Shown here: positions 22,901-58,000 of the stretch, piece after piece
Numbering within the stretch: the first letter of the stretch is position 1
Layout: each line of letters opens with the position of its first letter
Assembly (NCBI RefSeq): GCF_964355755.1
Contig: NC_092677.1
Coordinates: 28,304,101 to 28,368,100 of the forward strand
DNA: 64,000 bases
Origin: Antedon mediterranea
Lineage: Eukaryota; Echinodermata; Crinoidea; Comatulida; Antedonidae
Direction of reading: 5' to 3'
Made by a program: the position numbers and the translations under genes
Notes under the pieces: model-generated
Told to the model about the DNA's origin: nothing
What the model saw: the letters and a program-made list of their open reading frames with translations, nothing else
The model's database searches: none

Positions 22901-25900
22901 AAACTCCTTCTCCAGGAGATAGCTTTAACTTGGGCGTCTGCTTCCTCATGCTTATAGTTGATAGTATCATATTTTTCCTGATTATGTGGTGAGTTTTTTG
23001 TATTGATAAACATATCAATTGAGGGTTTTGACAACCTTAATAATTCAAAATGTATGACATTCATATCGATTTGTATGTGTTTGTATATATTTTGTTATGT
23101 TGTAAAATAACATATATCAGATATTATTTTACATTTTGGATTTTCAATTCAATATACCTTATAACATTAAGCCAGCACTCACAGGCTACTGTAGCTAATG
23201 AAATTGGAACTGAAACTTTTTGTTATGATGTCTAAACACCTAAATCCAACTCATACATTGTAGCTAATGAAACTAAAACAAAAAGTGTTATGTTGCATTG
23301 TGGATGTTGATTTAATTTCAGGTATGTCGAACAAGTTTTCCCAGGAAAGTATGGTATTCCACAACCGATTTACTTCCCTTTCCAAAGATCCTACTGGTTT
23401 GGACCTTCTTTAAACGAAATCGATGTTTGCCGAAATGATGAAGGAGGGGTAAGAATATAATTAAGAATAAATAAATATCAATAACTTTGATTTTTGCAGA
23501 AACTGAATATTAATTAGAAAATACAATTTAAATTAAATACATACATGTTTTATACTTCACAGTTTTCTATGGATAGGATAATTAGCAAAAACCATGAAGA
23601 ATCCCCAAATTTGGAAGTTGGTATTGATATTAAAAAACTGCGTAAAGTTTACCATGTAAGTATATTGCTTATTATGTTAGGCTTGTTAGTTCATGGAGGA
23701 AATATACAGATGTATACATATATATGTGTATATTTCCTCCATGGTTAGTTTTAATATGTTTTATATTTTTTTCATATCCTGAAAACATCCGGATTAAACA
23801 TATGCAGATAATTGATTAATAGCGTAATAAACAAAACAGCAAAATGTTTATATTTTACTTAGAGTTCAGTTGGGAAAAAACTTGCTGTTGATGACCTCTC
23901 ACTGAAGATGTACAAAGGTCAAATAACATCTCTTCTTGGTCACAACGGAGCTGGTAAAACTACTACAATGTCCATATTGACCGGTTTATTTCCACCAACT
24001 TCAGGCTCAGCTACTATCAATGGCAAGAGTATTGTGACAGACATTCAATCTGTACGGTCAAGTCTCGGCTTATGTCCACAGCACAATGTCTTGTTTGATC
24101 GTCTGACGGTTAAAGAACATCTCGATTTCTTTATTAATCTAAAGGTAATCAACAATTAACTATTAGTAACCATTTATATTATACAGTCACGTGTCAATAA
24201 CAAATCATTATTAACAAATTTGTGTTTTTTATTATAGGGTAAAAGTGGCCCAGAAGCCAATGCTGAAGTAAAGTCAATGATAGAAGACTTACAATTGGTT
24301 GACAAGACTAACACAGCATCCAGTTCACTGTCAGGTGGCATGAAACGAAAACTGAGGTAAACTTCTTCTCCATTTATCTACAAATTCGGATTCCAACTCT
24401 GATTTTATAGAAACGCAATTATTCCATTAAAAAAATCTATATATATATATATTTGTCACATATTCTGTATTTTAGTTGTGCGATTGCTTTGATTGGAGGA
24501 TCAGAAGTTGTGATTCTAGATGAGCCTACCTCTGGCATGGATCCATATGCACGTCGCGCTACTTGGGATTTGTTATTAAAGTACAAAGCAGGAAAGACCA
24601 TGGTACTCACTACACACTTTATGTAAGTAATGTATACAATATTAATATGTACATAGTAAGGGTTTTCAAATGAATATCCTCCGCAATTGTAAGCCTACAT
24701 ATTATATGTTATAAATACTGATTCTGATTGATTCTTTACTTTAGGGACGAGGCCGATTTGTTGGGAGATCGTATTGCCATCATGGCACACGGACAACTAC
24801 TCTGCAGTGGCAGCTCTCACTTTCTTAAAAACCGATATGGAGTTGGTTATCACATGACACTGGTTAAGAATGAAAATTGCCAAGTTGATCAACTTACAAA
24901 AATTATTCAAGATTATGTACCTGGAAGTTATCTGGAGTCAAATATTGGTGCAGAGCTTGCTTATATTTTACCAGGGGACAGTACCTCGCAGTTTCAATCG
25001 CTTTTTGAAAATGTTGAAGGTACTGTATACTTTAGCCGATAATGTAGCATTATCATACACACCACCTGCTCTAAAAAAAACTATCCTATGTATATTATCT
25101 CTTTCTTTGTGTTATAGGACAGCGAACAAGTCTCGGTGTTGAAAGTTTCGGTGTGTCCATCACAACTTTAGAAGAAGTATTCATGAAAGTTGGTGAACAA
25201 GCAGAAGCAAAAGCAAATGGAACTGCCAACAATGACGATGATGAAGAAGCCGTTGCATCTACAACAATGCAGAATATTCAGAAGGCAGCACAAACTGTAG
25301 ATATTTCAAAACTGGAGATTAAAAGAGAAGGTATTGTGCACATTATTTATTATTTCTAGTTAAAATGTTAGTAAACCATTTTTTAACAATCGTTTGTTTT
25401 AATTACTATAAACGTTTTATTTTCAGAATTGTTGACTGGGTTTGATTTAAAAGTTCAACAGTTTAAGGCCATGTTTCTGAAACGTTTCCTAAACAGCAGA
25501 CGGGACAAAAAGGCCGTTCTTCTTCAACTTTTCTTTCCATTGATGTTTATTTTACTTGGGTTAATTATCATTTTAACTACCGGTGGCGCTGGTGGTGATG
25601 ATGCTAAGTTAGAATTAAGTTTGAGCAAGTTAAACGAAGCTGAAAACGTTGACCATAAGGTGTATTATGCCGACTTTACCACAAATGCTGCTGTTAGAGA
25701 TGTACAGGTAATCATACTTCATTCTTAATTACCACAAATGCTGCTGCTGTTAGAGATGTACAGGTAATCATACTTAATGCTGCTGTTAGAGATGTACAGG
25801 TAATCATACTTAATGCTGCTGTTAGAGATGTACAGGTAATCATACTTAATGCTGCTGTTAGAGATGTACAGGTTATCATACTTAATGCTGCTGTTAGAGA

Positions 25901-28900
25901 TGTACAGGTAATCATACTTAATGCTGCTGTTAGAGATGTACAGGTAGTCATACTTAATGCTGCTGTTAGAGATGTACAGGTAATCATACTTAATGCTGCT
26001 GTTAGAGATGTACAGGTAATCATACTTAATGCTGCTGTTAGAGATGTACTGGTAGTCATACTTAATGCTGCTGTTAGAGATTTACAGGTAATCATACTTA
26101 ATGCTGCTGCTGTTAGAGATGTACAGGTAATCATACTTCATTCTTAAAAGAATATAATGTTTCACAATATAGTGATCGTCAAAAGGAAGAGTATCAGTTT
26201 CGAATGCTTGGTGTTTAGAACCTCAAAATTTTACCATTTTAAGCTTGTAGTGGCAGTAACTCTACATAGGAAATGTTTTTGTTTTAATTTTTGTTACCTA
26301 TAATTATTGTTTCAAGATTGATAATTGTTTTTCCACATTTGATGAATATAAATTACTCAATTTTTTTCAGAATTTCGACTATTTAGTAGGATTGAAGTTT
26401 AAGCAAAATGATGTTTTAAATGTTCGCAATGATGTCCAAACGATCATAGACATGAATAATGGAAAGGTCAAAGGTGAACCAGAACCAGTTCCTGTAACAG
26501 CAGAGTCATGTTGTCAATACAACTTTATTGTTCTCAACGACAATTGTGCTTCTTGGGTATGTCCGTATTCAAAATAAAGCTAATTATTAAAAGCAAACCA
26601 AGTCTGTAAAAATGAGGGTTCACTTATCTTCGTAATTAATATTACTAAAATACCATACATTTCGACGTTAGACCTGTTTTCATTTTTCATCATCAATTTT
26701 TTTTTACAGCTAAACTCGGCATCAAGAGATGTGTGCGATGATGTTAACTCGGAATATTCATATACCAACTGCAAGTCTTGTGTAAACAACACTTAGTACG
26801 TATGCTTACGTTTGTTCACTTAACAAAAATGGTCGTTATACTTGAAAATGCTCCTTGATTTATTGTTTCAGTTGTGCACTATAGTAATGTTGTTTATTAA
26901 TGCTAAAACTTGCATGCTTCCCAGATTTAGTTTTTTAAAGGATTTGGTTTTATTTTCTAGCTGGGATAGCACCGAGTGTCCGATTGGGGCACAAGTGAGT
27001 ATTTTATCAGATCCAAATACTTACTTTCAAGAATATGTTTTGGAAAAAAATCCAGACGATATACCAGGGTTTTTTAACGAGTTGGTGGCAGGCTTTGTGA
27101 CGGTAGACAATTCATTGGACACTGAGCTACTTGTTGCAAACATCCTCGCAGTCTCTAACAACAGCGCAGTTGTAAGTAATTCTTTAATGTTTCCTTTAAC
27201 ACAGGTTGAAACATATTCATATATAAACAATAAATGTCGTTTCTTCAATTTAACAAAAATAGAATGTACAAGTAGATAGACTCGTTGGCGGATTGCATTG
27301 ATGAACTTGTACCCTAATCTATATTGTGACATAACTTGTTTTTTTTTCAGTCGAATGTGACATTTATTAAACAATTAGCAAACTCTGATTTGGTAACTTC
27401 TGCTACAAATGTGACAAATGGAACTTTAATTACAGCATGGTATAGCAATGAGGTATTTTACAGCTTTAATATTTTTAACTAAAGTTGTATTATCACATTA
27501 TTCAGCATCAAGTGTGAGTGTTCAAATCAAATAAAACGAATTTAAATTGAGATGATTTTGGGAGAAATGTCTTATTTAATATTATCTTTTTTCAAATGAC
27601 AGGCCTATCATACATCAGCACAAGTTCTTAATGCTGCTTCTAACATGATTCTGCAGGCTGTTACTAGTGATGAATACAGCATTAAAACTTATAACTACCC
27701 ACTGCCTAAAGATCTCACATCTCAGGTATTTGAACATTATGAAGTTAAAAATAAATATACATACCAAATACGGTATCTACTTTAGTACTCTTTTCAATTG
27801 ACAAATCGGATTTTCTCAAAGTTTGCGTCTGTCCAAAACATAGAAGCGTGACAATGTTTTGGCCACGTGCGGCTTATTCTTCACTTATCAGCTTCACGTA
27901 TCCAATATTGTTGTGTAGGTGGATGACGCTTCATCGGGTGAGGATACATTTGGGCTTGCAATCTTAGTTGTCTTTGGTATGGCGTTTCTCACTGCTAGCT
28001 TTATTGGTTTCATTGTCGGAGAAAAGGAAAATAAGGTAATGATGAAAATAATTGATTTTACTCGTTTTTATTAAGGTGTTTGTTAATAGTTTTATAATAT
28101 AAATATATCATCATCTATCTTACCAAACTAAAAACAAATATATTGTGTTTACAGGCGAAGCATCTTCAGTTCGTAAGTGGAGTTGATACTTTAAGTTACT
28201 GGGGAGCTACATTCGTATGGGATCTTTGCAATTTTGCTATAGTTTATGTATGTATCATCATCATATTTGCAGCGGTCAACTTGGATGCTTATGGTGGTGA
28301 AAACCTTGGGGCTGTTGCTGTGATCTTTGTAAGTTAATGAATTACTTTAATTTTAATAATGATAGAATATACATTGAGAGATGGTTGCAAGTCATATTAA
28401 AGTCCATATTTCGAAATTATTAGCTTGCAACTCTTGAATTTAACATTTGTTCTTAAAAGACATTTTTTATATTTATTCCTACATAAGTTATACAATGTTT
28501 TATTATTTGTAGTTATTATTTGGTTGGATGGCTATTCCATTTGTGTATAGCGCATCTTTTCTGTTCAAGACTCCAGTCAATGCCACAGCTCTCACTATAT
28601 TCCTCCTTGCTATTCTTAGCATGGTAAGTAAACAATTATTGTATAACCTTAATATTCAAAACTGAACTGTAATGTTTATTCTATTTGAATTTGTTGATCA
28701 CCGATTATTGAATATAACATTTGATATTGAATATAACATTTAATATTGAATATAACATTTGATATTGAATATAACATTTGATATTGAATATAACATTTGA
28801 TATTGAATATAACATTTGATATTGAATATAACATTTGATATTGAATATAACATTTGATATTGAATATAACATTTGATATTGAATATAACATTTGATATTG

Positions 28901-31900
28901 AATATAACATTTGATATTGAATATAACATTTGATATTGAATATAACATTTGATATTGAATATAACATTTGATATTGAATATAACATTTGATATTGAATAT
29001 AACATTTGATATTGAATATAACATTTGATATTGAATATAACATTTGATATTGAATATAACATTTGATATTGAATATAACATTTGATATTGAATATAACAT
29101 TTGATATTGAATATAACATTTGATATTGAATATAACATTTGATATTGAATATAACATTTGATATTGAATATAACATTTGATATTGAATATAACATTTGAT
29201 ATTGAATATAACATTTGATATTGAATATAACATTTGATATTGAATATAACATTTGATATTGAATATAACATTTGATATTGAATATAACATTTGATATTGA
29301 ATATAACATTTGATATTGAATATAACATTTGATATTGAATATAACATTTGATATTGAATATAACATTTGATATTGAATATAACAATTAATATTGAATATA
29401 ACATTTGATATTATACAGATATTGACTGCTTAGAGGTTAAATATAAGATTTGATATTAACAATTTAATATTGACAATTAATATTGAATATAACATTTGAT
29501 ATTAACAATTAATATTGAATATAACATTTGATATTAACAATTAATATTGAATATAACATTTAATATTGACAATTAATATTGAATATAACATTTGATATTA
29601 ACAATTTAATATTGACAATTAATATTGAATATAACATTTGATATTAACAATTTAATATTGACAATTAATATTGAATATAAGATTTGATATTAACAATTTA
29701 ATATTGACAATTAATATTGAATATAACATTTTATTTGATATTAACAATTTAATATTGACAATTAATATTGAATATAACATTTGTCTAAAATTCTTTCTTT
29801 TTTATTATACAGTTTACGATTCTTACTGTTTTTATCTTGGGATTATTTGATGACGACATACCTGACGGTTTAGCTGACCAATTGGATTATATATTTTGCC
29901 TTATTCCAACACATTGCCTGGGTCAGGCTCTTATTACACTGGGCAATAATGATGCTATAAGGCGAGTGTGCACCACGGACCAAGAGTAAGTTTGATACTC
30001 ATACTCTAAGTAACAAGGCCATATACATGGCTGCAGTCGCCTGCTCAAGTTGCCTGCTCAAGTTGTTTACCGACCGACCAACCGACCGACATAGTGAGCT
30101 GTAGAGTCGCGTTGCACGCTACTAAAAACTAAAAATCTACTTTCGTTGAACAAAAACATTATAAATAAAACGTTTGTGTGTAAATGAATATTTGTGACAA
30201 TATGAGTTAAGAACATTGAACTTTTTTTAAACGTTGGTACCACTTTTTGGTTTGTTATAAAATATATGTTTAAATCTGTATTTTTAAAATATGTTTCACA
30301 GTTCAATGATGACTTGTATAGACGGTGGTGTTAAATACGAAGACAACAACTTAGCCTGGGACAAGCCTGGTATTGGTACCTATTGTTTGTACATGTTCAT
30401 AGCAGGAGTTGCCTTTATTATTCTTACATTGCTTATTGAGGTAATTTTGATCATTATGATTATATTTGGCTATGACGTCTCATGGTTGATTCTCTTTCCT
30501 TATTATCTATATTATTTTTCTTTATTGTAGGTCAACTTTTTTATTCCTGCAAGATCCGCGTCAGTTTTAAAGAATCACATTCCAAGTCCAGACGTAAGTT
30601 AACTTTCTTTAAAAAACAGCCATTAAGTCGCGTGCTACAATGCATAGTGATACCGGACCGACAGACAAACAGACCGACAGACAGACGGACCGACCGACAT
30701 AGTGAACTATACTGACCGAAATGTTTAAAAATGTTGAAATGTTTAAAAACATTTATATTTTACACGTGCGTAGCCTGTCACTTTTGACGTGCTCGTATAA
30801 CGTAATTTCGAGTTGAAAAGTAAGTCAAGAAAACAGAAATCAGGCAAAAAGAGTGCGCAATAACATTTAACGCGCAGTGCGCGCGCAAAAATCTGCGCAC
30901 TCATGGCAATTTTGTAAACGCTTAAAATTGCCTGAAACGTACTCTTATTTCATCGAAAATAAATTTTGAAAATTTTAAGCGCGCGTACGCATGCGTTACA
31001 TGCGCTACGCACGTAATTGTATTGCCATATGTTGATTTATGCCCTGAAATTTATGAGTACCAAATTTTATTTAATTGTGATTCATGGTTGTTAAGATATG
31101 ATTACAAACGTGATTTCGTTAAATCGTGCGTAGACCGCGTAATTTTTTATTGCGCACCGTGAAAACATAACCACATCGATTCCTGGCCATAAGGAATATT
31201 CTGTGAAAAATTGACTTAGCTAGATTAAACTGATATCAAGATAAGGTCATAAAGCGATAAAACGCATAGTGATACCGGACTGACAGACAGACAGACAGAC
31301 CGACAGACAGACCGACAGACAGACACACAGACCGACCGACCGACATAGTGAACTATAGAGTCGCTTCCACGCGACTAAAAACATGATAGATAACGTATAA
31401 TGGATATTTCACGTGTTTCATTTTTGTTCGGTGAATGAAGTTTAAGTGATAGATTTTTGGCTAAATATTGAATCAATTCGATGCAACCTAACGGTATTTC
31501 CTATATCATTCGGTTCTTTTTATTACATTTTGTATTCTTGTTTTAGGAATCAGATGTTGCAGCTGAAAGACAGAAGGTTCTACAACTTGATCTTAGTCAG
31601 GATGATTCAGCTGTTGTACTAAAAAACCTCTCAAAGGTACAAATTCAGTTTTATTCTATAGCTTGTATATGTATATTTTTTAATTGTCTTCATCATAATT
31701 ACAATTCGACGATATTATTTCAACAGGTGTATCCAAAGAAACCCGCACCGGCTGTGGATCAACTGTGTCTTGAGATACCCAAAGGACAATGCTTTGGACT
31801 GCTTGGAGTTAATGGTATTTATATTTCAGCATCTTTTACTAGATGTTTCTTTACACTGTATTTTAACGATAGGCAGGTGATATAAATGTCATGTCATGCC

Positions 31901-34108
31901 TATGTTAAAAGATGTTTGTTATATTATCATTAGGTGCTGGCAAGACTACAACATTTGGAATGTTGACAGGTGATCTGAGCATTACAGCAGGAACGGCTTA
32001 CATGGATGGATTTGACATCCAAACACAGAGGAAACTTGTAAGTGTTGTTATAAGAAATTGGAGTATAAATAGATTTGCATTAAAAATGAAGTGAAATACT
32101 GTAAGTATGATTTATTCACTTTGTATTTCATATTTTGTTACAGGTTCAGCAACGAATTGGTTACTGTCCACAGGTTAGTGTAACGTTTTAAATATAGAAT
32201 GCATAGGGAAAAAACTGTGTATAAAATATAAATGAATTATTAAATGGATAATGTTAATCAAAGTGTTTGTTGTACTTTTATTATTCAGTTTGATGCTTTG
32301 ATTGAGAGGTTAACAGGACGTGAAGTATTGACAATGTTTGCTCGTCTTCGTGGTATTCCAAGTCATCACATTGAAAATGTTGTTGAAACTACCGTCACAC
32401 ACTTGTCTCTTAATAAATGGGCAGATAAACTGTGTGGTGATTATAGGTATGTTGTCACTGATCAATAAAATTATATTTTACTATTCAAAGAAAAATAACA
32501 GTATCGATGTGGACATTCGTTTATGTACAAAAACATAATTTATGGACGGGATTTAAACATTTTCAACTGCATACAGATTATAGCAAATCGATAATAACGT
32601 TACCAAATGTTTTCAATTTGATTTGTCTAATTTCTTATAGTGGTGGAAACAAGAGGAAACTTAGCACTGGTATTGCTTTAGTTGGAAACCCACCAATTGT
32701 GTTCTTGGTAAGAATTACAAGGCAGTGTTTCAATCTTAAAATAATAAATTAAACCGGACTTTGATATTCCTTACTCCATTTATAATTTTATTTTAGGATG
32801 AGCCAACATCTGGAATGGACCCAACCGCACGGCGATATCTTTGGAATGCTCTAACATCAATCATGAAAGGAGGACGTTCCATTGTGCTAACATCACATAG
32901 GTATAAAGTCTTTATAATTAGTTATTCTGTTTGATGTAGTCTATATAGTTTGAATTGGTACAGTACCTTTCTAATTTTGTAAAATAATTGTGTGTCCATC
33001 TGAATGACACAATTGTTTACTTTATACCTACCTTCCTGTTACAGTATGGAAGAGTGTGAGGCCTTATGTACCCGTTTGGCTATAATGGTAAACGGACAAT
33101 TTAAATGTCTTGGGAGCACACAACATCTTAAAAGCAGGTAACCAACGTCTTATGTTGTAAATATTAGGTTTAATTAAATTTTCTGTTCAAATAAAATATA
33201 TCCTATGAGGAGCATTATTAATAATGTACTTGATAAACTGCTTATTATTCCTAGTGAGACAGTAATTATGCATTTAATGTGTATGCATACCGTACGTTTG
33301 TAAATTATCATTATTAATAATATTTAAATTTGACAGATATGGCAAGGGATATACTATGGTTATTAAAATGGAAGACGGTGTGCCATCAGAAGGCATCAAA
33401 GCATATATTACTGGAACGTTTCCAGGCGCAGTCTTAATGGAGGAACATCAGGTAATTATTCCAGCAATATTCACATTTAGGCCTATAGCCTATATAATTG
33501 AATTCATTAAAAAAAAATGTCATTATCTATTTTTGTATTTATTTATTTTTGTAACTACAGGGTGTATTACAATATCAAGTGGAAAATAGTGATCTTAGCT
33601 GGTCTTACATATTTGGTAAATTAGAAAGTAACAAACAAGCGTTGAGAATGGAAGATTACAGCGTCAGTCAGACAACACTAGAACAGGTATTTTGTCATAT
33701 TTAAATTGGTATTTTACAAATGTGCCATTCTTTCAGCCAAAGTTGCTAATTTTTAAAAATCGAAAAATAGAAAAATGTAAGATGGGTTCATACTCACTAT
33801 AGCATGTCTCGCAAAGTATAGTTTAAACTCTTTTTATTATCCCTTTATTTAAGGTGTTTATTAATTTTGCGAAAGAGCAGCACACAGACGCAGCATTTTC
33901 CAGAAAATTAAACAAGGCACATCACACAGAATACGCACAAAGACCATCAACTGGGGCTAGTCTTCGTAGAGAATCAACCAGGAGAAGTTTAAGATCAGGA
34001 CCACAGTCACCAAGATCGACATCACCACCACCAGCTGCTGCAAATGGTGGGACTTCACCCCCACCGTACTCACCTGCGCCTCAATATAATGCTGCTTATA
34101 TGGTTTGA
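16912..34108 (+). CDS. ABCA3: ABCA3-like lipid transporter, gene A (41 coding exons, 1,866 aa)
   Basis: Full-length ABCA transporter, expected to move phospholipid across a membrane using ATP; vertebrate ABCA3 loads surfactant lipid into lamellar bodies. Coding exons: 16912-16968, 17352-17425, 19093-19124, 19275-19421, 20247-20366, 20804-20954, 21232-21346, 21529-21639, 21950-22093, 22240-22436, 22788-22988, 23322-23448, 23563-23655, 23863-24144, 24238-24356, 24476-24622, 24745-25019, 25118-25330, 25427-25707, 26371-26556, 26710-26795, 26961-27171, 27351-27452, 27603-27725, 27919-28035, 28155-28328, 28513-28623, 29813-29985, 30302-30440, 30531-30593, 31547-31636, 31727-31814, 31934-32037, 32144-32173, 32289-32446, 32641-32707, 32797-32900, 33045-33137, 33337-33451, 33561-33686, 33854-34108. 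They sum to 5,601 bp in one open frame, all GT-AG. The start [16 protein letters not shown] matches the family N-terminus. The exon 5 acceptor (20246) was chosen because it keeps the frame and gives 120 bp as in gene B. Human ABCA3 is about 1,704 aa. ABCA1-type alternatives are less likely given the short first luminal domain. Confidence 0.93.
17066..17193. repeat. Intron 1 tandem repeat, gene A (about 3.5 copies, 36-40 bp)
   Basis: Units of ATGATTAATGACATTGAACA plus TAATGCCATGGTTACTCC, some lacking a TA. Entirely intronic. Confidence 0.85.
18075..18825. repeat. Intron 2 minisatellite, gene A (49 bp, about 15 copies)
   Basis: Units of GGCACTTGTTATTGTTGATG plus ATGACAAAACATGTAGCAA, then AAGCAGACT, with point variation (TGATGATGAC/TGATGACGAC, GCAAAAAG/GCAAGAAG). 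Variant positions recur in alternating copies, suggesting block-wise amplification. Confidence 0.93.
19798..19928. repeat. 65-bp tandem duplication in intron 4, gene A
   Basis: Two identical or nearly identical copies of TTGCGGTCAGTGATTGGTCA ... TTTGATGGCTGATGC, each containing one AGGCCTA. Confidence 0.9.
23322..25330 (+). other. ABCA3: Gene A: nucleotide-binding domain 1 and acidic linker
   Basis: Exons 12-18. Walker [10 protein letters not shown] is at residues 549-557, signature LSGGM at 648-652, Walker [14 protein letters not shown] starts at 668 (catalytic Glu 673), and the switch His is 704 in TTHFMDEAD. All catalytic residues are intact. The segment [18 protein letters not shown] follows, as in ABCA3. 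Exon 18 ends in an acidic linker (NNDDDEEA) before the second half. The coupling start [15 protein letters not shown] is in exon 12. Confidence 0.92.
25708..26134. repeat. Exon 19 donor-junction minisatellite, gene A (36 bp, 12 donors)
   Basis: The real 3' end of exon 19 (GCTGCTGTTAGAGATGTACAG) and the first intron bases (GTAATCATACTT) are repeated 11 more times with a 36-bp period. Donors lie at 25708, 25764, 25800 and so on to 26127. The spacing of the first copy differs, and it contains an in-frame TAA (CATTCTTAA), so only the first donor can give full-length protein. Gene B has no such array at this junction. Confidence 0.93.
28699..29405. repeat. 19-bp minisatellite in intron 27, gene A (about 36 copies)
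   Basis: Near-perfect tandem copies of ATATTGAATATAACATTTG. Three minus-strand open frames through this array are by-products of the period. The array is intronic and starts about 75 bp downstream of exon 27. Confidence 0.97.
29440..29785. repeat. Higher-order AT-rich repeat derived from the 19-bp unit
   Basis: Longer composite units built from TTTGATATTAACAATTTAAT, ATTGACAATTAATATTGAAT and ATAACA. They look like a diverged second-generation array next to the 19-bp minisatellite. Confidence 0.85.
30040..30135. repeat. Dispersed repeat end in intron 28 (CGACATAGTGA family)
   Basis: ACCGACCGACCAACCGACCG then ACATAGTGAGCTGTAGAGTCGCG, ACGCTACTAAAAA. Related copies end near 30716 and 31380 in intron 30. 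Confidence 0.7.
30624..31384. repeat. Dispersed repeat with CAGA/CCGA microsatellite, intron 30 gene A
   Basis: AGTCGCGTG at 30627 and CGCGACT at 31371 form short inverted ends. Internally there are two blocks of GCATAGTGATACCGGAC, a run of ACAGACAGACCGAC units and CCGACATAGTGAACTATA (ends near 30711 and 31358). It looks like a SINE or MITE pair that carries its own microsatellite. No coding capacity. Confidence 0.6.
31547..33686 (+). other. ABCA3: Gene A: nucleotide-binding domain 2
   Basis: Exons 31-40. Walker A GVNGAGKTT is at residues 1514-1522 (split by intron 32), signature SGGNKRKLS starts at 1614, Walker [13 protein letters not shown] has Asp 1637 and Glu 1638, and the switch region is [12 protein letters not shown]. 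Exon 34 is a 30-bp microexon encoding [10 protein letters not shown], which includes the Q-loop. The regulatory segment [13 protein letters not shown] follows, as in ABCA3. Catalytically intact. Confidence 0.92.
33854..34108 (+). other. ABCA3: Gene A: extended proline-rich C-terminal tail with PPPY and a possible PDZ ligand
   Basis: After [17 protein letters not shown] the tail is basic and Ser-rich ([12 protein letters not shown]), then Pro-rich ([22 protein letters not shown]), ending AAYMV. PPPY is a consensus ligand for WW domains such as those of NEDD4-family ubiquitin ligases. The last four residues fit a class II PDZ ligand. Gene B stops before both motifs. Binding partners are inferred from motif only. 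Confidence 0.8.
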
Positions 34109-34338
34109 ATCATTTAAACACTATAATTATTATGAATCACGATATAATGATTGGTATGTCATAATTTTTGTAAAAGTTGTTACTTGGTGTATCAGGAATA
34201 TTGTAAGAAATATGGCCTATAAAAGAGTTTCTTTGGGTTACAGTTACAGGCTGTATTAACCTTGTAATCCATGAGTTGTTTTTTTTAACTTTATTTTTTT
34301 GTGGACTATAGTGAATGTAGTAGTTCGTTATACTGTAT

Positions 34339-34375
<37 letters not shown>

Positions 34376-35226
34376 CGTTTCAAATTAATTAATTAAATTT
34401 CAGTATATCACCGGGCGGTTTAGAATTAATGTTCTTTGCCTCTTGTGTTTATATATATAATCTATGTTATAGCGTTTTATTGTGTAAACTTAGCACAATA
34501 TATTCCTAAAAGAAAGTGCAATTATGTGGTAATATTTAATCCATTTTTATGACATTTTTGTGACTGAAATACGATTCTCTATATTTTGTGACTGAAAGGC
34601 GCTCTAGAATTCTTATTATGCAGCTATATTTTTATATAACATAGATTATAAATTATTTAAAAAACTATAGCGTTTTAAAATTGAAATATTTAACTTAGGC
34701 AGACATTTGGCTTTTTCACCAAAATTATCATTTTATCGGCTTCTAATGAAGCCATGAGTCACATGGTTACCACAACAACATACAGTCTGCACCAGCTAAT
34801 TAGTAATAGATAATATTATAAATATCATATTTTATAACAATTACAGTTTTGCAATAGTCTGACCATTTTATTCACATTTTAATGGACAATTACAATTCAA
34901 CCGAGTTTTTAGGAATTTTCTATATTTTAATAATATTGTTAAATCAGTGTACTGCAATATGGGCAATTGTCTGCTTTGTCATAGTATTACGTAATCGTTG
35001 TCCGTGACAATTGTGTTTGACATTGATAGAATGTGAGTTACCGTAGATTTCAAGGTCTATAACACAATAGCAGTCGTTTCGTAATAAACTCGGAGTCTCA
35101 AAACCAAGAATATTGATTGATAATTGATTTCGAAGCCAGAACATTTTTTTTAATGAATAAAAGTGAAGTTCTATAGCTTTGAAATAATTGTTTAGGATGT
35201 CTTTTAAAAATCATATGTGTCCAACT
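34109..35226. other. 3' flank of gene A; candidate poly(A) signals
   Basis: No coding region follows the stop codon. The first candidate signals are ATTAAA at 34392-34397 and canonical AATAAA at 35083-35088. An (AT)n tract is at 34342-34369. Either signal would give a long 3' UTR. Confidence 0.4.
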
Positions 35227-36161: not shown

Positions 36162-36168
36162 CTGTAAT

Positions 36169-46000: not shown

Positions 46001-49000
46001 CCGCGACTGGAGATTCTTTCAATTTAGGAAACTGTTTTCTTATGCTTTTACTTGATAGCTTCATCTTTTTCATCATCATGTGGTAAGTATTATTTTTGAG
46101 TGGAATACCTTCAGATGTTTTTAATGTATCAAGTCTCCATAGGTTTAGTAGTTATAGCTTGTCTATTCATCTATTTCTAAAACAACTCAGAAACATAAAA
46201 GCATAGATCGTGTATACGAGTACTTACTATGAAATAGTCAATAGAAGTGATTATCATTTTAGGTATGTAGAGCAAGTGTTTCCAGGCAAATATGGTATTC
46301 CACAACCAATTAATTTTCCTTTTAAGAAGTCATACTGGTGTGGAAATGTAGTGCATGTTTCTCCTGATGATGAAGCACAGGTACTGTATGCTGTTTCTCT
46401 TACTTAATTAAATGTTTAAGTCAAATAAAATTTAATACTTTTATAGAGTTTCTATACTCTGCTGTTATGATACATGTTACTTCTTTTGCAATTTTGTACA
46501 GATAGCCATGAATAACATCGATAACAAAAATCATGAAAGTGCCCCAAACATTGAAGTTGGTATTGATATTAAGAATCTGCGAAAGGTTTACAAGGTAAGT
46601 AAAATTACATTTTACAAGGTTTACAAGGTTAGGTTTACAAGGTAAGTAAAATTACATTTTACAAGGTTTAGGTTAGGTTTACAGTAAAATTACATTTTAG
46701 TGATATTACTATTCATACATTAAATACTGAACTCTATGATTTAAAAAAATATCTTCGTTTAGAGTTCAGTTGGGAAAAAACTTGCTGTGGACGACCTCTC
46801 ACTGAAGATGTACAAAGGTCAAATAACATCTCTTCTTGGTCACAACGGAGCTGGTAAAACTACTACAATGTCCATCTTGACCGGTTTATTTCCACCAACT
46901 TCAGGCTCAGCTACTATCAATGGCAAGAGTATTGTGACAGACATTCAATCTGTACGGTCAAGTCTCGGCTTATGTCCACAGCACAATGTCTTGTTTGATC
47001 GTCTGACGGTTAAAGAACATCTGGATTTCTTTATTAATCTAAAGGTAATCAACAATTAACTATTAGTAACCATTTATATTATACAGTCACGTGTCAATAA
47101 AAAATCATTATTAACAAATTTGTGCTTTGTTTTATAGGGTAAAAGTGGTGCAGAAGCCAATGCTGAAGTAAGGTCAATGATAGAAGACTTACAACTGGTT
47201 GACAAGACTAACACAGCATCCAGTTCACTGTCAGGTGGCATGAAACGAAAACTGAGGTAAACTTCTTCTCCATTTATCTACAAATGCTGATTTTAACTCT
47301 GATTTTATAGAAACGCAATTATTCCATTAAAAAAATATGTATTTGTCACATATTCTGTATTTTAGTTGTGCGATTGCTTTGATTGGAGGATCAGAAGTTG
47401 TGATTCTAGATGAGCCTACCTCTGGCATGGATCCATATGCACGTCGGGCTACTTGGGATTTGTTATTAAAGTACAAAGCAGGAAAGACCATGGTACTCAC
47501 TACACACTTCATGTAAGTAATGTATACAATATTTTAATTATCTTCAGATAATCTTTTTCAAATGTAACAGGTCCGCAATTGTATATATGTTATAAATACA
47601 GATTTTCGCACCGCTGCTTTAGCCAGCTATGTCCGAAGAGGATATACTCATTAAGAAGCTTTATCATCGTAGTAGCTATAGTTCTAAGGCCGACAGTTTT
47701 GGGAATTTGTAAACTCGACTATAATTTATAGGTCCCAGCTGCTGGACCCAAAAAACGTATAAAGCGAGTCTATGAGGGCTCACGGTTGAACGATTTTGCA
47801 TTCTCGCTCTTTGATTGGTTGGCGAGAATCAACAGACTGAGGAAGAATTTTCTCACTTGTACCGCCGTAAAGTCACGTTGTCTAGAGGGTATTCAGTTGC
47901 ATGCCTACAGGTTGGGCTCACACACACACAGCACATTAAAGTTCAAAATTTACCATTTTTAAATGCCATTTTTTAATTAGTAGATTAATATTTTGTTGGA
48001 TAGGTACACATGTCTTCTTTCAAATTGTTGAAAATTAGCAGAAATATCAATTATTCAATGAAATACAACCAGATTACTAACACCCAACAAAATGGCCATG
48101 ATGTGATTTATAATTAAATAGCTATGTTAGATTTTGTGTATTTTTGCGATTAACCAACATATTTTTATTTTGTTACACGTTTCCATGGCAACAAAATGTT
48201 CATAAATTATTAAAAATTGTGTATTTATAGTACAATTAACTAGTGAAAAAATTGGCATAATGTGATTCTTAATTAAAGAACTATCTTTGATTTGTATGTA
48301 TTTTTGCAATTAAAGAACATCTTTTAATAATTAATCATTTAATATATCTGAAGAAAGAACAATGATTAATTTTAAAATGTCGAGTGGCGTTTTTTGTAAG
48401 AAATATTTCTTATTTACTTTAGGGACGAGGCCGATTTGTTGGGAGATCGTATTGCCATCATGGCACACGGACAACTACTCTGCAGCGGCAGCTCTCACTT
48501 TCTTAAAAACCGATATGGAGTTGGTTATCACATGACACTGGTTAAGAATGAAAATTGCCAAGTTGATCAACTTACAAAAATTATTCAAGATTATGTACCT
48601 GGAAGTTATCTGGAGTCAAATATTGGTGCAGAGCTTGCTTATATTTTACCAGGGGACAGTACCTCACAGTTTCAATCGCTTTTTGAAAATGTTGAAGGTA
48701 CTGTATACTTTATGTTGAAGGTACTGTATACTTTATGTTGAAGGTACTGTATACTTTATGTTGAAGGTACTGTATACTTTATGTTGAAGGTACTGTATAC
48801 TTTATGTTGAAGGTACTGTATACTTTATGTTGAAGGTACTGTATACTTTATGTTGAAGGTACTGTATACTTTAGCCGATAATGTAGCATTATCATACACA
48901 CCAGATGCTCCACAATAATATAGTATATTTACATTTCTCTTTCTTTGTGTTGCAGCAAAGCGAACAAGTCTCGGCGTTGAAAGTTTTGGTGTGTCCATCA

Positions 49001-52000
49001 CAACTTTAGAAGAAGTATTCATGAAAGTTGGTGAGCAAGCAGAGGCAAAAGCGAATGGAACTGCCAACAATGACGAGGGTGAGGGCGCTGTTGCATCCAC
49101 CACGATGCAGAATATTCAGAAAGCAGAAAAAGCTGTTAATATCTCACAACTTGAAACCAGAAGAGAAGGTACTTAAAATAAATAAATTTGCATAATGTTC
49201 TAAACTCAAGTAATATGTAGGAATTTTTATTTAAACCTATCTAAAACTGGATCTAACGTTTGTTTCTTTTTTTTTCAGATTTGCTTAGTGGGTTAGCTTT
49301 AAAAGCTCAGCAGTTTAAAGCTATGTATATTAAGCGTTTTCTCAACAGTAAACGTGACAAAAAAGCTGTCATTATTCAATTCTTTTTCCCACTTTTGTTC
49401 ATTTTTCTTGGATTATTGATTATTCTACTTTCTGGGGGTAGTGCGGCTACTGATGATCCTAAGTTGGAACTAAGTTTGATTAAGTTGAATGAGGCTGAAG
49501 ACTTAAATCATCGGGCATATTATGCTGACTTTACTGGCAATGACGCAGTCAAGATATTTCAGGTCATTTTCTTATACTACTATAACACTACACAATTGAA
49601 AATAAGTTGTTGCAATGAGGAATACCATTGATAATGATTTAGCATAAAATACTCCTTATTCTTAATATCTTAGAATGTTGAAAGTTACTTGGTCAGCCTA
49701 AAATTTTTAGAAGAAAGTGTAGAAAATATAGAAGGTACAGTACAGACTCTGATGAATGAAAACAGCTATGGAAAGGTCAAAGGTGAAGACATACCGAGTC
49801 CAATGGCACGATACTGTTGTTTGTACAACTTCATCATTTTGAATGAGGAGTGTTCTTCTTGGGTGAGTCCTTTGTCAATCTTATTGATCATACAAAAAAA
49901 ATGAAAAGAGTTTTTTTCAAGTGTCCTTTGTCACTCTTATTGGTCATAAATTATTATATGACAATGACGGAAAAAACAATTGCACAAACATTCATATAAT
50001 CAGCAAATTGTTTATTTTAGATCCGTAATCAGCCTGAAGATGCATGCAAAGACTATCCTGAATATTCCTACACAAACTGCCCATCTTGCTATAATTCTAC
50101 AGAGAAGTAAGTAATATTCATTGACACTGTTTAACATTGGCTTACTTATATTACAATAAACTTTTGTTTAATTTGCTAGGTTATATGGTTCATGTCCAGT
50201 TGGTGCACAACCCAGCATTCTGTCTGACCCAAACACTTACTTTCAAGAGAGCGTCTTGGAAGAAGATGCTGACAATGAACCTAACTTTTTCAATGAACTT
50301 GTGGCAGGTTTTGTTTCTGTTAACGCTACCTTTGATGCACAGCAAGTTGTTCCAAATCTTTATGCAATTTTCAATAATAGTTTAATTGTAAGTATTTGAT
50401 AGGAATGAGATGTGTACCAACAACCATATTTTCTCTGTATGAAAATAATATCATGGTGCAGTACACCACAACACTGCTTTCTAAATCAATCCAGGGAAAA
50501 GTGAAATTCAATCTAATCATTTACTGATTTGTGACAGGAAGACAAACATTTTGAAACAAAACTGATTTACCTAAAAATGTAATTTGTGTTATGCTAATTT
50601 TCATATAAATATGTTTATATTTTCAGGCAAATGTGTCATTTGTTAAGAAACTAGAAGAAGTGAATTTTTATGAGCTTGCATTAAATGTTAGTACTGGGAC
50701 TCTAGTGACAGCCTGGTACAGTAATGAGGTAAAATGTTCTACTTTTTAATGGAGACAAACACTAATGGTTAAGATGAAATGTTATTATATCAGCATTACT
50801 GTTTGGAAATAAGATGTTATTATATCAGCATTACTGTTTGGAAATAAGATGTTATTATATCAGCATTACTGTTTGGAAATAAGATGTTATTATATCAGCA
50901 TTACTGTTTGGAAATAAGACGTTATTATATCAGCATTACTGTTTGGAAATAAGATGTTATTATATCAGCATTACTGTTTGGAAATAAGATGTTATTATAT
51001 CAGCATTACTGTTAGGAAATAAGATGTTATTATATCAGCATTACTGTTAGGAAATAAGATGTTATTATATCAGCATTACTGTTTGGAAATAAGATGTTAT
51101 TATATCAGCATTACTGTTTGGAAATAAGATGTTATTATATCAGCATTACTGTTAGGAAATAAGATGTTATTATATCAGCATTACTGTTAGGAAATAAGAT
51201 GTTATTATATCAGCATTACTGTTAGGAAATAAGATGTTATTATATCAGCATTACTGTTAGGAAATAAGATGTTATTATATCAGCATTACTGTTAGGAAAT
51301 AAGATGTTATTATATCAGCATTACTGTTTGGAAATAAGATGTTATTATATCAGCATTACTGTTTGGAAATAAGATGTTATTATATCAGCATTACTGTTTG
51401 GAAATAAGATGTTATTATATCAGCATTACTGTTAGGAAATAAGATGTTATTATATCAGCATTACTGTTTGGAAATAAGATGTTATTATATCAGCATTACT
51501 GTTTGGAAATAAGATGTTATTATATCAGCATTACTGTTAGGAAATAAGATGTTATTATATCAGCATTACTGTTAGGAAATAAGATGTTATTATATCAGCA
51601 TTACTGTTAGGAAATAAGATGTTATTATATCAGCATTACTGTTAGGAAATAAGATGTTATTATATCAGCATTACTGTTAGGAAATAAGATGTTATTATAT
51701 CAGCATTACTGTTTGGAAATAAGATGTTATTATATCAGCATTACTGTTAGGAAATAAGATGTTATTATATCAGCATTACTGTTAGGAAATAAGATGCAAA
51801 TTGCAGGCATACTATAGTATACTTCTTTTTCAACCTTTTTTAATATCATGACATTTGAAAATTAAAATTCAAAGCATGCCATACAACATTTGTTTGTAAT
51901 TTACATGGGCACCATACAGTACATAATTACAAGCATACCATACCTTTAGCCCAAGCATGCCATACAACATTTGTTTGTAATTTACATGGGCACCATACAG

Positions 52001-55000
52001 TACATAATTACAAGCATACCATACCTTTAGCCCAAGCATGCCATACAACATTTGTTTGTAATTTACATGGGCACCATACAGTACATAATTACAAGCATAC
52101 CATACTTGTTTTTTTTTCAAATTATACCCATACCATATGTTTTTGTTTTCACATTACAGGCATACCATACCTCTGTGCAAGTTCTTAATGCTGCTTCTAA
52201 CATGATACTGAAGTCTTTTACTAGCGATGAATACAGCATTACAACTTACAACTATCCCCTGCCTCGGAATGTAACAGCTCAGGTATTTTATCCTCAGTTT
52301 AAGTACTATTTTTAAAACATATTATTGAAAGTATACATATCTAGTATGTAGTAAAATTGACTTTTTATTGTGAATACAAGATACTAAGTCTACTTTATTG
52401 TAAAAACTTTACATTTTTGAGATATGTTTTGTACCATAGTAGATCATTAAATAATACATAGTGATATATATTTAAATAAATTTCATGCCATATACAGTGT
52501 TGAAAATCTGAAACGTTTTGTCAAAATTGTTTTCTGTGTCAGTCTAGCCCTTCCTGATCTGCTAATAATAATAATATCTGAGTGTAATGGGTGGGTTGAG
52601 TCTTGTATAATTGAGTTTTCTTAAGTATAAACATTTTAAAATGAACATGTTTTCAGTTAGTATTTTTATGTTACATAGGCAGAGGAAGCAGCTTCAAGTG
52701 AGAGTGCATTTGGTCTGTCAATCTTGGTGGTATTTGGTATGGCTTTTCTTTCAGCTAGTTTCATCGGTTTTGTTGTTGGTGAGAGAGAAAACAAGGTGAC
52801 TATACTTTCTACCTTTGTTTTCACAGTAGTTGAGTTCCTGCATCATACATACTATTACTTTTATTACATTTAATTATCAATCTTTATTATCAACCTAAAC
52901 AAATATATTTTCTCAATTAAATGAAGTTAACACAACAGCAACAACTCAATTTCCTCTCTCATTGAAAGCACTTCTTGAAGTAAGCATAAAAACATATTGT
53001 TGTATTTTGTAGGCAAAGCATCTTCAGTTTGTGAGTGGTGTTGATCCACTGAGTTATTGGGGTGCTACCTTTGTATGGGATGTGTGTAATTTTGCCATTG
53101 TCTTTGTTGGTATCATCATCATGTTTGCAGCATTTAATCTAGATGCATACGGAGGTTCTAATCTTGGAACAGTTGCTTTACTCTTTGTAAGTTTCAATTT
53201 TGTATAAAAATTACGAGTGAGAATCAAAATCTTAAGGCATTTAATGAAAATGCAGACTGTCTTAAAAGAAGAAAACTATTCATCAGAACTGTAATCAAAG
53301 CCTAGAGTACTTATATACCTACTAAACAGTTATATTTAAATGAGGCAATAATTTACAGAATAAAGACATCATGGATATCAATCCACCACTGATATTATGT
53401 CATTTGTTTTGTTTTCTTTGTAGCTGTTATTTGGTTGGATGGCTATTCCATTTATCTATAGTGCAGCTTTTATGTTCAAGACTCCAGTCAATGCCACAGC
53501 TCTTACAATATTCCTCCTTGCTATTCTAAGCATGGTAAGTAACGTTGTTCAAGACTCCAGTCAATGCCACAGCTCTTACAATATTCCTCCTTGCTATTCT
53601 AAGCATGGTAAGTAACGTTGTTCAAGACTCCAGTCAATGCCACAGCTCTTACAATATTCCTCCTTGCTATTCTAAGCATGGTAAGTAACGTTGTTCAAGA
53701 CTCCAGTCAATGCCACAGCTCTTACAATATTCCTCCTTGCTATTCTAAGCATGGTAAGTAACGTTGTTCAAGACTCCAGTCAATGCCACAGCTCTTACAA
53801 TATTCCTCCTTGCTATTCTAAGCATGGTAAGTAACGTTGTTCAAGACTCCAGTCAATGCCACAGCTCTTACAATATTCCTCCTTGCTATTCTAAGCATGG
53901 TAAGTAACGTTGTTCAAGACTCCAGTCAATGCCACAGCTCTTTCCTCCTTGCTATTCTAAGCATGGTAAGTAACGTTGTTCAAGACTCCAGTCAATGCCA
54001 CAGCTCTTACAATATTCCTCCATGCTATTCTAAGCATGGTAAGTAACGTTGTTCAAGACTCCAGTCAATGCCACAGCTCTTACAATATTCCTCCTTGCTA
54101 TTCTAAGCATGGTAAGTAACGAATGTAAAGCAACTTACTGTACCTATTTAGTATGTTTGATATTATATTATTTTTAATAGATTAAGGTGGTGAAAATTAG
54201 GTAAATAAAAGTAATTTGAATTTGTTTGTGTTTCAACAGTTTACAATTCTTACTATCTTTGTCCTGAGTATTCCTGGACTTGGATTGGAGAGCACAGCCA
54301 ATGCGTTAGACTATGTGTTTTGTCTTATTCCAACACATTGCTTAGGACGAGCATTCTCTGTATTAGGTGATAATGATGGTTTGAGACGGATATGCACTGC
54401 CAGTCAAGAGTGAGTTTATAAACAAAACATTTATTTATTAATTATTATTTTAGAAATGTGGATTTTTGGCTACACCACTGTGTAGCCTTTATTGGAAACA
54501 AGTACTGCTATGATTGTGTTTTTGTAAACTTTTGGTTTTCTAAATAGACTTGAGTATTGATATTGTTGTATAATTAGTTTGTGTATATTGTTTTTATATT
54601 ATGATATTAGAGCTATGATAAATTGTCAAATGTCAGGATATGTCTATCAAGATAGCAACTTAGCCTGGGACAAGCCTGGTATTGGTACTTATTGTTTGTA
54701 CATGTTTATTGGTGGAATTGTGTTCATCATTCTCACATTGCTTATTGAGGTGAGTTAAATATTATTTTCAGAGGTAGGCATTTTATATTTATATACATTA
54801 AGTACTTATATTTTATATTTATATGGATCATCATTTGTTTGCATTTTGCAAAAAAAAAGGTATGATAAATGAAAAATTTGATAATGTATTAATTAATTTA
54901 AAAAATGATAATGTATTAATAGACTTCTGTTTTTGTTATCAGGTCAACTTCTTTATCCCTTCTCGTTCAGCTTCTGTGCTCAAAGGGCACGTTTCAAATC

Positions 55001-58000
55001 CAGATGTAAGTTTTATTTATAATGGTTACATTACAGACAGCCTTTATAATTTGTGTGATGTATGTTATACATTCTACTGTGGCATATTTTAACGATATAA
55101 CTTGTTATTTTGTTTCTAGGATTCAGATGTTGCAGATGAGAGACAAAAAGTTTCTGAGCTTGATCCTAAAAACAGTGATTCTGCTGTAATTTTACAAAAT
55201 CTTTCCAAGGTAAAAGATTAGATGAGAAATTTAACTCATTTAATTTTAAATGTTGATTCATTGAGTAATCCTAACCCAGAATCACAAATTTAATAATATT
55301 GAATACTATGTTAAAATACTGTATATATACCTTTCAGGTGTACAGGAAGAAGCCAGCTCCTGCAGTGGATCAACTATGTCTTAACATACCCAAGGGTCAA
55401 TGCTTTGGTCTTCTTGGAGTTAATGGTATGTACCTGTATATATTAACTCAATACAACAGCTTTAAATTTTATTATGTATTATTAATATTGAAAGTCTGAC
55501 ATTTGTCATGTTATAAATTATTGTATTAGGTGCTGGCAAGACTACAACATTTGGAATGTTGACAGGTGATCTGAGCATTACAGCAGGAACAGCTTACATG
55601 GATGGATTTGACATCCAAACACAGAGGAAACTCGTAAGTCTATGTTGATTGAAAAAGATTTAAACTATGATGCATTTTGTTTGTACCTCATTGTTAAAAG
55701 GACAATAAAAAATATTCAAACTTTGTATAATTCAAGACACCTTTTCAAGTCGAATTTTTCTTGTTTTATCAAACAATAATTCATATATTTTGTCAACAGG
55801 TTCAGCAAAGAATTGGATACTGCCCTCAGGTTAGTGAACTTTCTTTCTTGTTGTAAAAGATTCCTGATATTGTATTCATCACTACATGATAACAAATAAT
55901 AGTTTTAAAGAATTGCTTCTTGAGTTCTACGGCAAATTGATACATGATACTGTTTCTTTTTTTAGTTTGATGCTTTGCTTGAGCGGCTAACAGGACGTGA
56001 AGTATTGACAATGTTTGCTCGTCTTCGTGGTATTCCAAATCATAACATTGAAAATGTTGTTGAAACTACCGTCACACATTTGTCTCTTAATAAATGGGCA
56101 GATAAACTGTGTGGTGATTATAGGTATGTTGTCACTGATAAACTGTGTGGTGATTATAGGTATGTTGTCACTGATAAACTGTGTGGTGATTATAGGTATG
56201 TTGTCACTGATAAACTGTGTGGTGATTATAGGTATGTTGTCACTGATAAACTGTGTGGTGATTATAGGTATGTTGTCACTGATAAACTGTGTGGTGATTA
56301 TAGTTATGTTGTCACTGATAAACTGTGTGGTGATTATAGGTATGTTACCAGTCAATCAAATGCTCTGATACTCCTGCTCTAGTAAACAATCTTAAGATAT
56401 TTTTTATGTGTATGATGATACAAAAAATAAATTTATTTTAAACATTTGTTTAAGTTATAATAATTTTTTTTATAGTGGTGGAAACAAGAGGAAACTTAGC
56501 ACTGGTATTGCTTTAGTTGGGAACCCACCAATTGTTTTCCTGGTAAGAATGGTTACATAATATTATAACTAACTCTTCACAGATTTACGATGTTTGTGTA
56601 TAAGTATGAACAACCAAGTAGGACAAATATATTGAAATTATTCCAGATACAATAAGAAATATTTTTATCCAACTGAACTTCAGAAAACTTGTCTAGTGCG
56701 GTAGTTTCTTGTCAGTAGAGTGGATTTTTAATTAAGAATTAATTATGAGAATGAAATATTACATCTGGCACATTTAATTCTTTAGGATGAGCCTACGTCT
56801 GGAATGGACCCAACCGCACGACGATATCTATGGAATGCTCTGACATCTGTCATGAAAGGTGGACGCTCCATTGTGCTAACATCACATAGGTAGAGTTTAT
56901 TTTAAATTAGCTATACTGATTGATATAATCTGCTTCCCAAGTTTGTAATTGAAACTAATAATCTATCTTGTTACAGTATGGAAGAGTGTGAGGCCTTATG
57001 TACCCGTTTGGCTATAATGGTAAACGGACAATTTAAATGTCTAGGGAGCACACAACATCTTAAAAGCAGGTATACTATTATTTGGCCTTGTTGCTTCTTC
57101 CATATCTCATATGAATGAGACATGTGAGACATTCTGTTAATTTTCATTAAGGACTGAATAAATTGGAAGCATAATATTCATGAGTTAAACATGTATCTAC
57201 TGTATGCATTCAATGACTGACATTGTTTTGTAGGTATGGCAAGGGCTATACAATGGTATCTACTGTATGCATTCAATGACTGACATTGTTTTGTAGGTAT
57301 GACAAGGGCTATACAATGGTATCTACTGTATGCATTCAATGACTGACATTGTTTTGTAGGTATGACAAGGGCTATACAATGGTATCTACTGTATGCATTC
57401 AATGACTGACATTGTTTTGTAGGTATGGCAAGGGCTATACAATGGTATCTACTGTATGCATTCAATGACTGACATTGTTTTGTAGGTATGGCAAGGGCTA
57501 TACAATGGTTGTTAAAATGGAAGATGGTGTGCCCATGGATGGAATTAAATCATTCATTAATGGAACATTTGAAGGTGCAGTTCTTTTGGAGGAACATCAG
57601 GTAAACTATGTCATAATACAGACCTTCAGTTCTATTAGTTCATTCAGTTTATGAAAGGTTTTGTATTTAATAACAATATTACAATACAATGTTATTCAGG
57701 GTGTATTACAATATCAAGTGGAAAATAGTGATCTTAGCTGGTCTTACATATTTGGTAAATTAGAAAGTAACAAACAGGAGTTGAGAATGGAAGATTACAG
57801 CGTCAGTCAGACAACACTAGAACAGGTAAGACATTTGACAGTTATTGTCTCCAACATGTGTATACCATGCTCTTTAGTATCAGGCTTTTCTTCTTTCATG
57901 TTTTTATACCAAAATAAAAAAACAAAGAGTGGGTTCTTAAATTATTACTTTCATTTGTTTAAGGTGTTTATCAATTTTGCAAAAGAGCAGCACACAGACG

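What the first reader, a model, noticed from the sequence alone, without database searches (positions are those of the whole stretch)
25708..57500. Recurrent tandem amplification of exon-intron junctions in two ABCA paralogues
In gene B the donor junctions of exons 10, 13, 17, 27 and 35 and the acceptor junction of exon 39, and in gene A the donor junction of exon 19, have each been amplified in tandem with the splice site inside the unit (periods 72, 47, 23, 73, 36, 63 and 36 bp). The units are unrelated in sequence, so these are independent events. In each case the other paralogue has a single copy. Ordinary minisatellites would be expected to fall anywhere in the introns; here a real splice site lies inside the unit seven times. 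Possible explanations are a mechanism that targets transcribed junctions, selection against other placements, or a route of intron change through tandem duplication of GT- or AG-containing segments.
Basis: partly seen in the sequence, partly recalled or inferred. Interest (0 to 1): 0.9.

Follow-up and report, generated by a model that had tools for sequence, protein, structure and literature searches.

The report
Minisatellites spanning splice sites: ABCA mirages
Two neighbouring animal transporter genes carry short tandem repeats that copy real splice sites up to 33 times; this kind of repeat is already known from amphioxus as a 'mirage', and the number here is only about twice what random placement in such intron-dense genes would give.

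Summary
Two 38-exon ABCA3-like genes (A 16912-34020, B 37100-58128) were modelled; all seven arrays exist with the stated periods and each holds a real donor or acceptor. Units are unrelated; the paralogue is single-copy at each site. In 6 of the 7, of the sites with comparable score only the outermost copy (first donor, last acceptor) keeps the reading frame. Targeting of junctions is weakly supported. With 74 introns in 30.6 kb of collapsed gene, random placement of 16 arrays already predicts 4.3-5.1 junction hits; 8-9 are seen (P 0.009-0.07, in a window chosen afterwards). No array is purely exonic (3.15 expected, P 0.028), so purifying selection explains part. Genome-wide, a donor motif sits in short-period arrays 1.6 times as often per site as its reversed control (CI 0.56-4.25). 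The window is array-rich inside and outside the genes (27 in 64 kb against 16 in 120 kb elsewhere). A junction array also occurs in a DHX8 homologue. The kind is known: amphioxus 'mirages'. Unusual are the crowding in gene B and a natural test of splice-site choice among 33 identical donors.

The parts
16912..34020 (+). Gene A, ABCA3-like transporter, 38 exons modelled (C-terminal end not fixed; last exon cut at 34020 before a stop)
   Evidence: A/B conservation and spliced model, open throughout
37100..58128 (+). Gene B, ABCA3-like transporter, 38 exons, ends with a stop
   Evidence: first 731 residues match solved ABCA3 (7w01) at E 1.8e-240
41562..41852 (+).
   Evidence: TRF 88% match; sequence
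43402..45778 (+). 72 bp x 33 array holding the donor of B exon 8 (43465); 33 comparable donors
   Evidence: only the first donor keeps the frame
46584..46683 (+). 47 bp x 2.2 array holding the donor of B exon 11 (46595)
48689..48873 (+). 23 bp x 8 perfect array holding the donor of B exon 15 (48698)
   Evidence: A is identical over the 23 bp but single-copy
50779..51796 (+). 35 bp x 29 array wholly inside a B intron (no junction)
51872..52105 (+). 81 bp x 2.9 array wholly inside a B intron (no junction)
52087..52170 (+). weak 32 bp x 2.6 array reaching the acceptor of B exon 21 (52160)
   Evidence: TRF 79% match, score 108
53473..54121 (+). 73 bp x 9 array holding the donor of B exon 24 (53535)
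   Evidence: A single-copy, 67 of 73 identical
56101..56346 (+). 36 bp x 6.8 array holding the donor of B exon 32 (56124), just before the second ABC signature; open in frame at every comparable donor copy
   Evidence: A identical over 36 bp but single-copy
57193..57509 (+). 63 bp x 5 array holding the acceptor of B exon 36 (57486); 5 acceptors of equal score
   Evidence: only the last acceptor keeps the frame
25684..26138 (+). 52-bp duplication followed by a 36 bp x 10.9 array; holds the donor of A exon 17 (25708)
   Evidence: only the first of 9 comparable donors keeps the frame; B single-copy and diverged there
28706..29783 (+). 19 bp x 37 array and degenerate continuation wholly inside an A intron (no junction)

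Best explanation
These are ordinary minisatellites that happen to include a splice site, the kind called 'mirages' in amphioxus. Shown: short segments (23-151 bp) are repeated in tandem, up to 33 nearly identical copies, in an array-rich stretch 214 kb from a contig end; 27-32% of random placements of these arrays in these intron-dense genes would straddle a junction. Inferred: arrays inside exons are removed by selection because they change the protein, whereas a junction-straddling array is tolerated because the spliceosome uses the outermost copy (first donor, last acceptor), the one giving the shortest exon, as exon definition would predict. All other copies then become intron and the protein is unchanged. 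No special targeting of junctions is needed, although a bias of up to a few-fold is not excluded.
For: Random placement predicts 4.3-5.1 of 16 against 8-9 seen; no purely exonic array where 3.15 were expected. The window is array-rich: 27 arrays in 64 kb against 16 in 120 kb at 12 other places, and 12 against 3 for arrays of >= 3 copies and >= 95% match; density is about the same outside the two genes (0.46 per kb) as inside (0.39 per kb). In 6 of 7 arrays, of the comparable sites only the outermost leaves an intact reading frame. Donor motif in arrays against reversed control: ratio 1.63 per site, CI 0.56-4.25. Pure-intron arrays of the same look lie in the same genes (35 x 29, 19 x 37, 49 x 15). 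The same kind occurs in an unrelated gene, a DHX8 homologue with a 37-bp array of about 22 copies at a donor, its next exon intact. Published globin and Adh3 mirages are reported not to disturb splicing (PMC3087553, passages read).
Against: Gene B alone has 8 of 11 where 3.3-3.8 are expected (P 0.003-0.007), more than comfortable. In the stretch listed for both motifs, donor arrays outnumber control arrays 7 to 2, and at spacing 54-84 bp donor pair hits outnumber control hits 358 to 218, though one long array gives most of those listed. Use of the outermost copy rests on reading frames, not on cDNA. In the 36-bp array of B exon 32 every comparable copy is in frame, so frame says nothing there.
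Confidence: 0.73

Rival explanations
1. A mechanism that favours junctions: tandem duplication in the germ line is started preferentially at transcribed exon ends (for example at R-loops, paused polymerase or splice-factor-bound DNA), so arrays form at splice sites more often than elsewhere.
For: 8-9 of 15-16 arrays at junctions against 4.2-5.1 expected; gene B alone P 0.003-0.007; donor arrays 7 against 2 control arrays in the same 101 Mb; at least one independent case, DHX8.
Against: Gene A 1 of 5 against 1.0; genome ratio 1.63 with CI 0.56-4.25; of 7 donor-motif arrays only 2 were seen to lie at an exon end, 2 show no open exon and 3 could not be resolved; three ABC genes at C1:7.6 Mb have 2 arrays in 30 kb.
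Confidence: 0.12
2. The arrays are kept because they do something: several equal donors or acceptors tune alternative splicing or slow splicing of gene B.
For: The B exon 32 array is in frame at every comparable donor, so each inner one would insert a multiple of 12 residues before the ABC signature.
Against: In the other six arrays every comparable inner copy gives a frameshift or stop; the units are unrelated; gene A does without them.
Confidence: 0.05
3. A stage on the way to new introns or sliding intron borders: copies with AG|GT can act as acceptor and donor and be recruited as exons or introns.
For: Unit junctions such as TATAG|GTATG and CAG|GTAA hold AGGT; the model is proposed for amphioxus globin mirages (PMC3087553), and tandem duplication as a route of intron gain for Drosophila and other genomes (PMC2891723, PMC3443670).
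Against: The exon borders with arrays sit at matching places and the same codon phase in A and B, so no intron has been gained or moved there.
Confidence: 0.06
4. Assembly artefact: collapsed or expanded repeats, single-copy in the animal.
For: Reads are not on hand; in amphioxus the genome draft misassembled one globin mirage, though the mirage itself was real (PMC3087553, passage). Copy numbers here may therefore be off.
Against: Arrays with unrelated units and different inner variants, flanks in register with the paralogue, and the same kind in another gene.
Confidence: 0.04

Closest known systems
Amphioxus 'mirages' (Adh3, globins BflGb6 and BflGb9, troponin C, PGBD5)
   Same: Minisatellite-like tandem duplication of an exon-intron boundary, at donors or acceptors; units 10-72 bp in Adh3, 150-160 bp in the globins, 60 and 108 bp in PGBD5; BflGb6 units 81-100% alike; splicing reported undisturbed (PMC3087553, PMC3902484; passages read).
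   Different: Here 7-9 such arrays crowd two neighbouring genes, 6-8 of them in one gene, with up to 33 copies. The organism is not identified; its 11 large contigs do not fit the 19-20 chromosomes of Branchiostoma (chromosome count recalled), but another lancelet is not excluded.
Internal tandem repeats at exon-intron borders of human genes in segmental duplications
   Same: Minisatellite expansion that changes gene structure between recent paralogues, some at exon-intron borders (PMC2812944, passages read).
   Different: There half of the variable repeats lie in coding sequence and some are taken to make new introns; here no coding change is seen.
Intron gain by tandem genomic duplication of AGGT-bearing exon segments
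   Same: Tandem copies of a segment with splice-site potential (PMC3443670, PMC2891723; passages read).
   Different: Those make an intron from exon sequence; here an existing border is copied and no intron is gained.

Membership tests
Mirage (splice-border minisatellite) | Tandem repeat unit spans a real exon-intron border | tested here: met
   7 of 7 claimed arrays, plus 1 clear and 1 weak extra
Mirage (splice-border minisatellite) | Unit size 10 to about 160 bp, copies highly alike | tested here: met
   23-151 bp, 88-100% match in the eight clear arrays; the weak ninth 79%
Mirage (splice-border minisatellite) | Normal mRNA despite duplicated splice signals | not testable with these tools
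   No cDNA; the frame demands the outermost copy in 6 of 7
Mirage (splice-border minisatellite) | Length polymorphism between haplotypes | not testable with these tools
   One assembly only; A and B differ at the seven arrays compared
Intron gain by tandem duplication | New intron position absent from the relative | tested here: not met
   Borders with arrays match between A and B in place and phase
Junction-targeted duplication | Splice sites in arrays well above a random expectation | tested here: inconclusive
   About 2-fold in the window; genome motif ratio 1.63, CI 0.56-4.25

The most novel reading that the evidence does not exclude
In this lineage tandem duplication is biased a few-fold towards transcribed exon-intron borders, so that mirages arise again and again, and the spliceosome reliably picks the outermost of up to 33 identical sites at both ends of exons.
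Probability: 0.12. Interest if true: 0.75.

Novelty: new member of a known kind. Interest (0 to 1): 0.42.

Why it matters
Gene B is a natural experiment on splice-site choice: five donor arrays and one clear acceptor array offer several equal-scoring sites each, and in all but one the frame shows which must win if the gene is to work. The first donor and the last acceptor are the choices that give the shortest exon, as exon definition would demand; for the acceptor this goes against simple use of the first AG transcribed. Long-read cDNA from one animal would test this directly. If the animal is not a lancelet, it would also show that mirages are not confined to them.

Tried and rejected
Ab initio gene prediction over the 12 random stretches was considered and dropped: too little training data and many transposon frames. 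Of the 16 random arrays none was tested for junctions. The two arrays in the three ABC genes at C1:7.6 Mb (L052, L053) were not tested for junctions either. Identifying the species from size and chromosome number failed: none of the 39 listed papers on assemblies with 11 chromosomal pseudomolecules gives 354.4 Mb in the abstract start shown, and one of the 39 shows no size there. Five literature searches for the phenomenon gave nothing closer than the lancelet papers; 27 and 67 asked for all of 4 or 5 terms and found no paper, so they are weak. The Adh3 paper (PMC117041) is not held, so what is said of it comes from PMC3087553 and PMC3902484. The idea that the intronic part of each donor unit is always short was dropped: the 47-bp unit has 36 intronic bases. 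Array loci were sorted by eye into arrays, lone pairs and microsatellites, which is a judgement.
Full report
SETTING. The window is G000:C8:28304101-28368100 of a 354-Mb assembly with 18 contigs. C1 to C11 are 22.3-41.4 Mb; C12 has 567 kb. The window ends 214 kb from the end of C8. The species could not be named; by its gene content it is taken to be an animal.

GENES. Comparing all open frames of the window with each other and a small spliced-model script, then hand correction, gave two tandem genes of 38 exons each: A 16912-34020 and B 37100-58128. Both read open through all exons; B ends in a stop, A's last exon was cut at 34020 before a stop. One boundary (B exon 18 donor) is uncertain by one base. 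The first 731 residues of B match ABCA3 best among solved structures (7w01, E 1.8e-240). Exons have a median of 119 bp, introns 194 bp.

THE ARRAYS. A 151-bp duplication also copies the acceptor of B exon 5, and a weak 32-bp array (79% match) reaches the acceptor of B exon 21. Units are unrelated (15 units compared, no pair at E <= 0.01). The paralogue has no array at these sites. At B exons 15 and 32 the paralogue is identical over the whole unit (23 of 23 and 36 of 36), which suggests that these arrays are younger than the last homogenisation of A and B there; the tract 23859-25034 / 46759-48712 is 93-99% identical, introns partly included.

IS IT MORE THAN CHANCE? I collapsed each array to one unit and placed units at random. 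Set: 16 arrays, chosen by hand from TRF as period >= 19 and score >= 100, overlapping rows merged (5 in A, 11 in B); shorter or weaker rows were dropped. Observed at a junction 9 of 16; expected 4.3 (P 0.009), or 5.1 if purely exonic placements are barred (P 0.03). Without the weak array: 8 of 15, P 0.024 and 0.072. B alone: 8 of 11 against 3.3-3.8, P 0.003 and 0.007. A alone: 1 of 5 against 1.0. So there is about a two-fold excess in a window selected for looking striking. No array of 16 lies wholly in an exon although 3.15 would (P 0.028), which fits purifying selection.

GENOME-WIDE LOOK. Annotation is not available, so I asked how often a donor consensus, MAGGTRAGT, recurs at 23-53 bp, against the same pattern read backwards. 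Whole-genome pair hits are 237 and 1776, dominated by a few long arrays, so loci were counted by eye from the rows listed (100 at most per call, taken to run in contig order). Donor list: 7 arrays and 2 lone pairs in 101 Mb. Control list: 15 arrays, 2 microsatellites and 20 lone pairs in 271 Mb. In the stretch common to both lists: 7 donor arrays against 2 control arrays, all loci 9 against 6. Per single site (10966 and 15796 hits, array copies roughly removed) the ratio of arrays is 1.63, CI 0.56-4.25, and of all loci 0.85, CI 0.36-1.79. Only part of the motif hits are real donors, so the test is blunt. Large targeting is unlikely; a few-fold bias is not excluded. For spacing 54-84 bp the counts were 358 donor and 218 control pair hits, the listed donor hits coming mostly from one 68-bp array; the control list was not obtained, so no loci are compared.

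INDEPENDENT CASES. I read about 520 bp at the upstream edge of all 7 donor arrays. Two sit at the end of an open exon: C1:17776253, about 22 copies of 37 bp after an exon that matches DHX8 (E about 1e-19), with the next DHX8 exon intact beyond the array; and C3:18140345 downward on the minus strand, about 22 copies of 17 bp after an open exon with no clear match (best E 0.38), so predicted only. Two show no open exon by the script (L055, L057). Three are unresolved: L056 and L062, where the array runs past the fetched edge, and L061, where only a G-rich, low-complexity candidate was found. A further array, C1:19363306-19368754 (68 bp), could not be read. Three much alike ABC genes at C1:7.6 Mb have 2 arrays in 30 kb, their relation to junctions not tested.

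WHY HERE? The window has 27 arrays (period >= 20, score >= 100) in 64 kb against 16 in 120 kb from 12 places elsewhere (P 1.7e-4); with >= 3 copies and >= 95% match 12 against 3 (P 4.5e-4). Density is 0.46 per kb outside the two genes and 0.39 inside, so the stretch, not the genes, is array-rich. The place near a chromosome end may matter; that minisatellites cluster near telomeres in other animals is recalled, not tested.

HOW IT WORKS. For each copy of the junction with a comparable score I asked whether its use keeps the frame. B exon 8: 33 donors, only the first works. Exons 11, 15, 24 and A exon 17: only the first of 2, 8, 9 and 9. B exon 36: five equal acceptors, only the last works. B exon 32: all six comparable donors are in frame and the inner ones would insert multiples of 12 residues before the second ABC signature. 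The 151-bp and the weak array were not tested this way. Shown: sequence, frame, position. Inferred: the gene works, so the outermost copy is used. First donor and last acceptor are both the choice that gives the shortest exon, as exon definition would. An array at a junction then adds only intron and is nearly neutral, whereas an array inside an exon is not.

WHAT IS KNOWN. Minisatellite-like duplications of exon-intron borders are known in amphioxus as mirages: Adh3 (units 10-72 bp), globins BflGb6 and BflGb9 (150-160 bp), troponin C and PGBD5, at 5' and 3' borders, with splicing reported undisturbed, length polymorphism, and intron gain proposed (PMC3087553 and PMC3902484, passages seen; the original Adh paper not held). 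The present arrays meet the structural definition. Notable here are the crowding in one gene, the copy number of 33, and a genome whose 11 large contigs do not look like Branchiostoma (its chromosome number recalled).

VERDICT. Observation confirmed and extended; targeting not shown; best read as ordinary minisatellites in a repeat-rich stretch, filtered by selection and made harmless by splicing to the outermost copy. Worth a cDNA check as a natural test of splice-site choice.

Noticed in passing
23859-25034 with 46759-48712: Exons 12-15 of A and B, with parts of their introns, are 93-99% identical in DNA while the nearest aligned pieces on either side are 76-81%: a tract that looks like recent gene conversion.
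   Followed up: partly
window as a whole: Tandem arrays are about three times as dense as in 12 stretches elsewhere, inside and outside the genes; the window lies 214 kb from a contig end.
   Followed up: partly
L054 / L059 (G000:C1:17776253-17777061): A homologue of DHX8, itself a splicing helicase, carries about 22 copies of a 37-bp unit over one of its own donor sites.
   Followed up: yes
G000:C1:19363306-19368754: An array of about 80 copies of 68 bp with AAGGTAAGT in each; whether an exon precedes it is open.
   Followed up: no
61173-61400 and 63727-63925: 16-bp arrays of the same motif in opposite orientation (CGCCCCATCGCA and its complement), as in ends of a fold-back element.
   Followed up: no
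L051, L052, L053 (G000:C1:7.616-7.682 Mb): Three ABC transporter genes alike at about 90-100% over long shared stretches, apparently recent duplicates (output partly cut).
   Followed up: no
L044:3496-3898 and L048:5357-5454: Arrays of 99 and 33 bp inside open frames; the 33-bp unit also holds TTTCTTCAG, an acceptor-like word.
   Followed up: no
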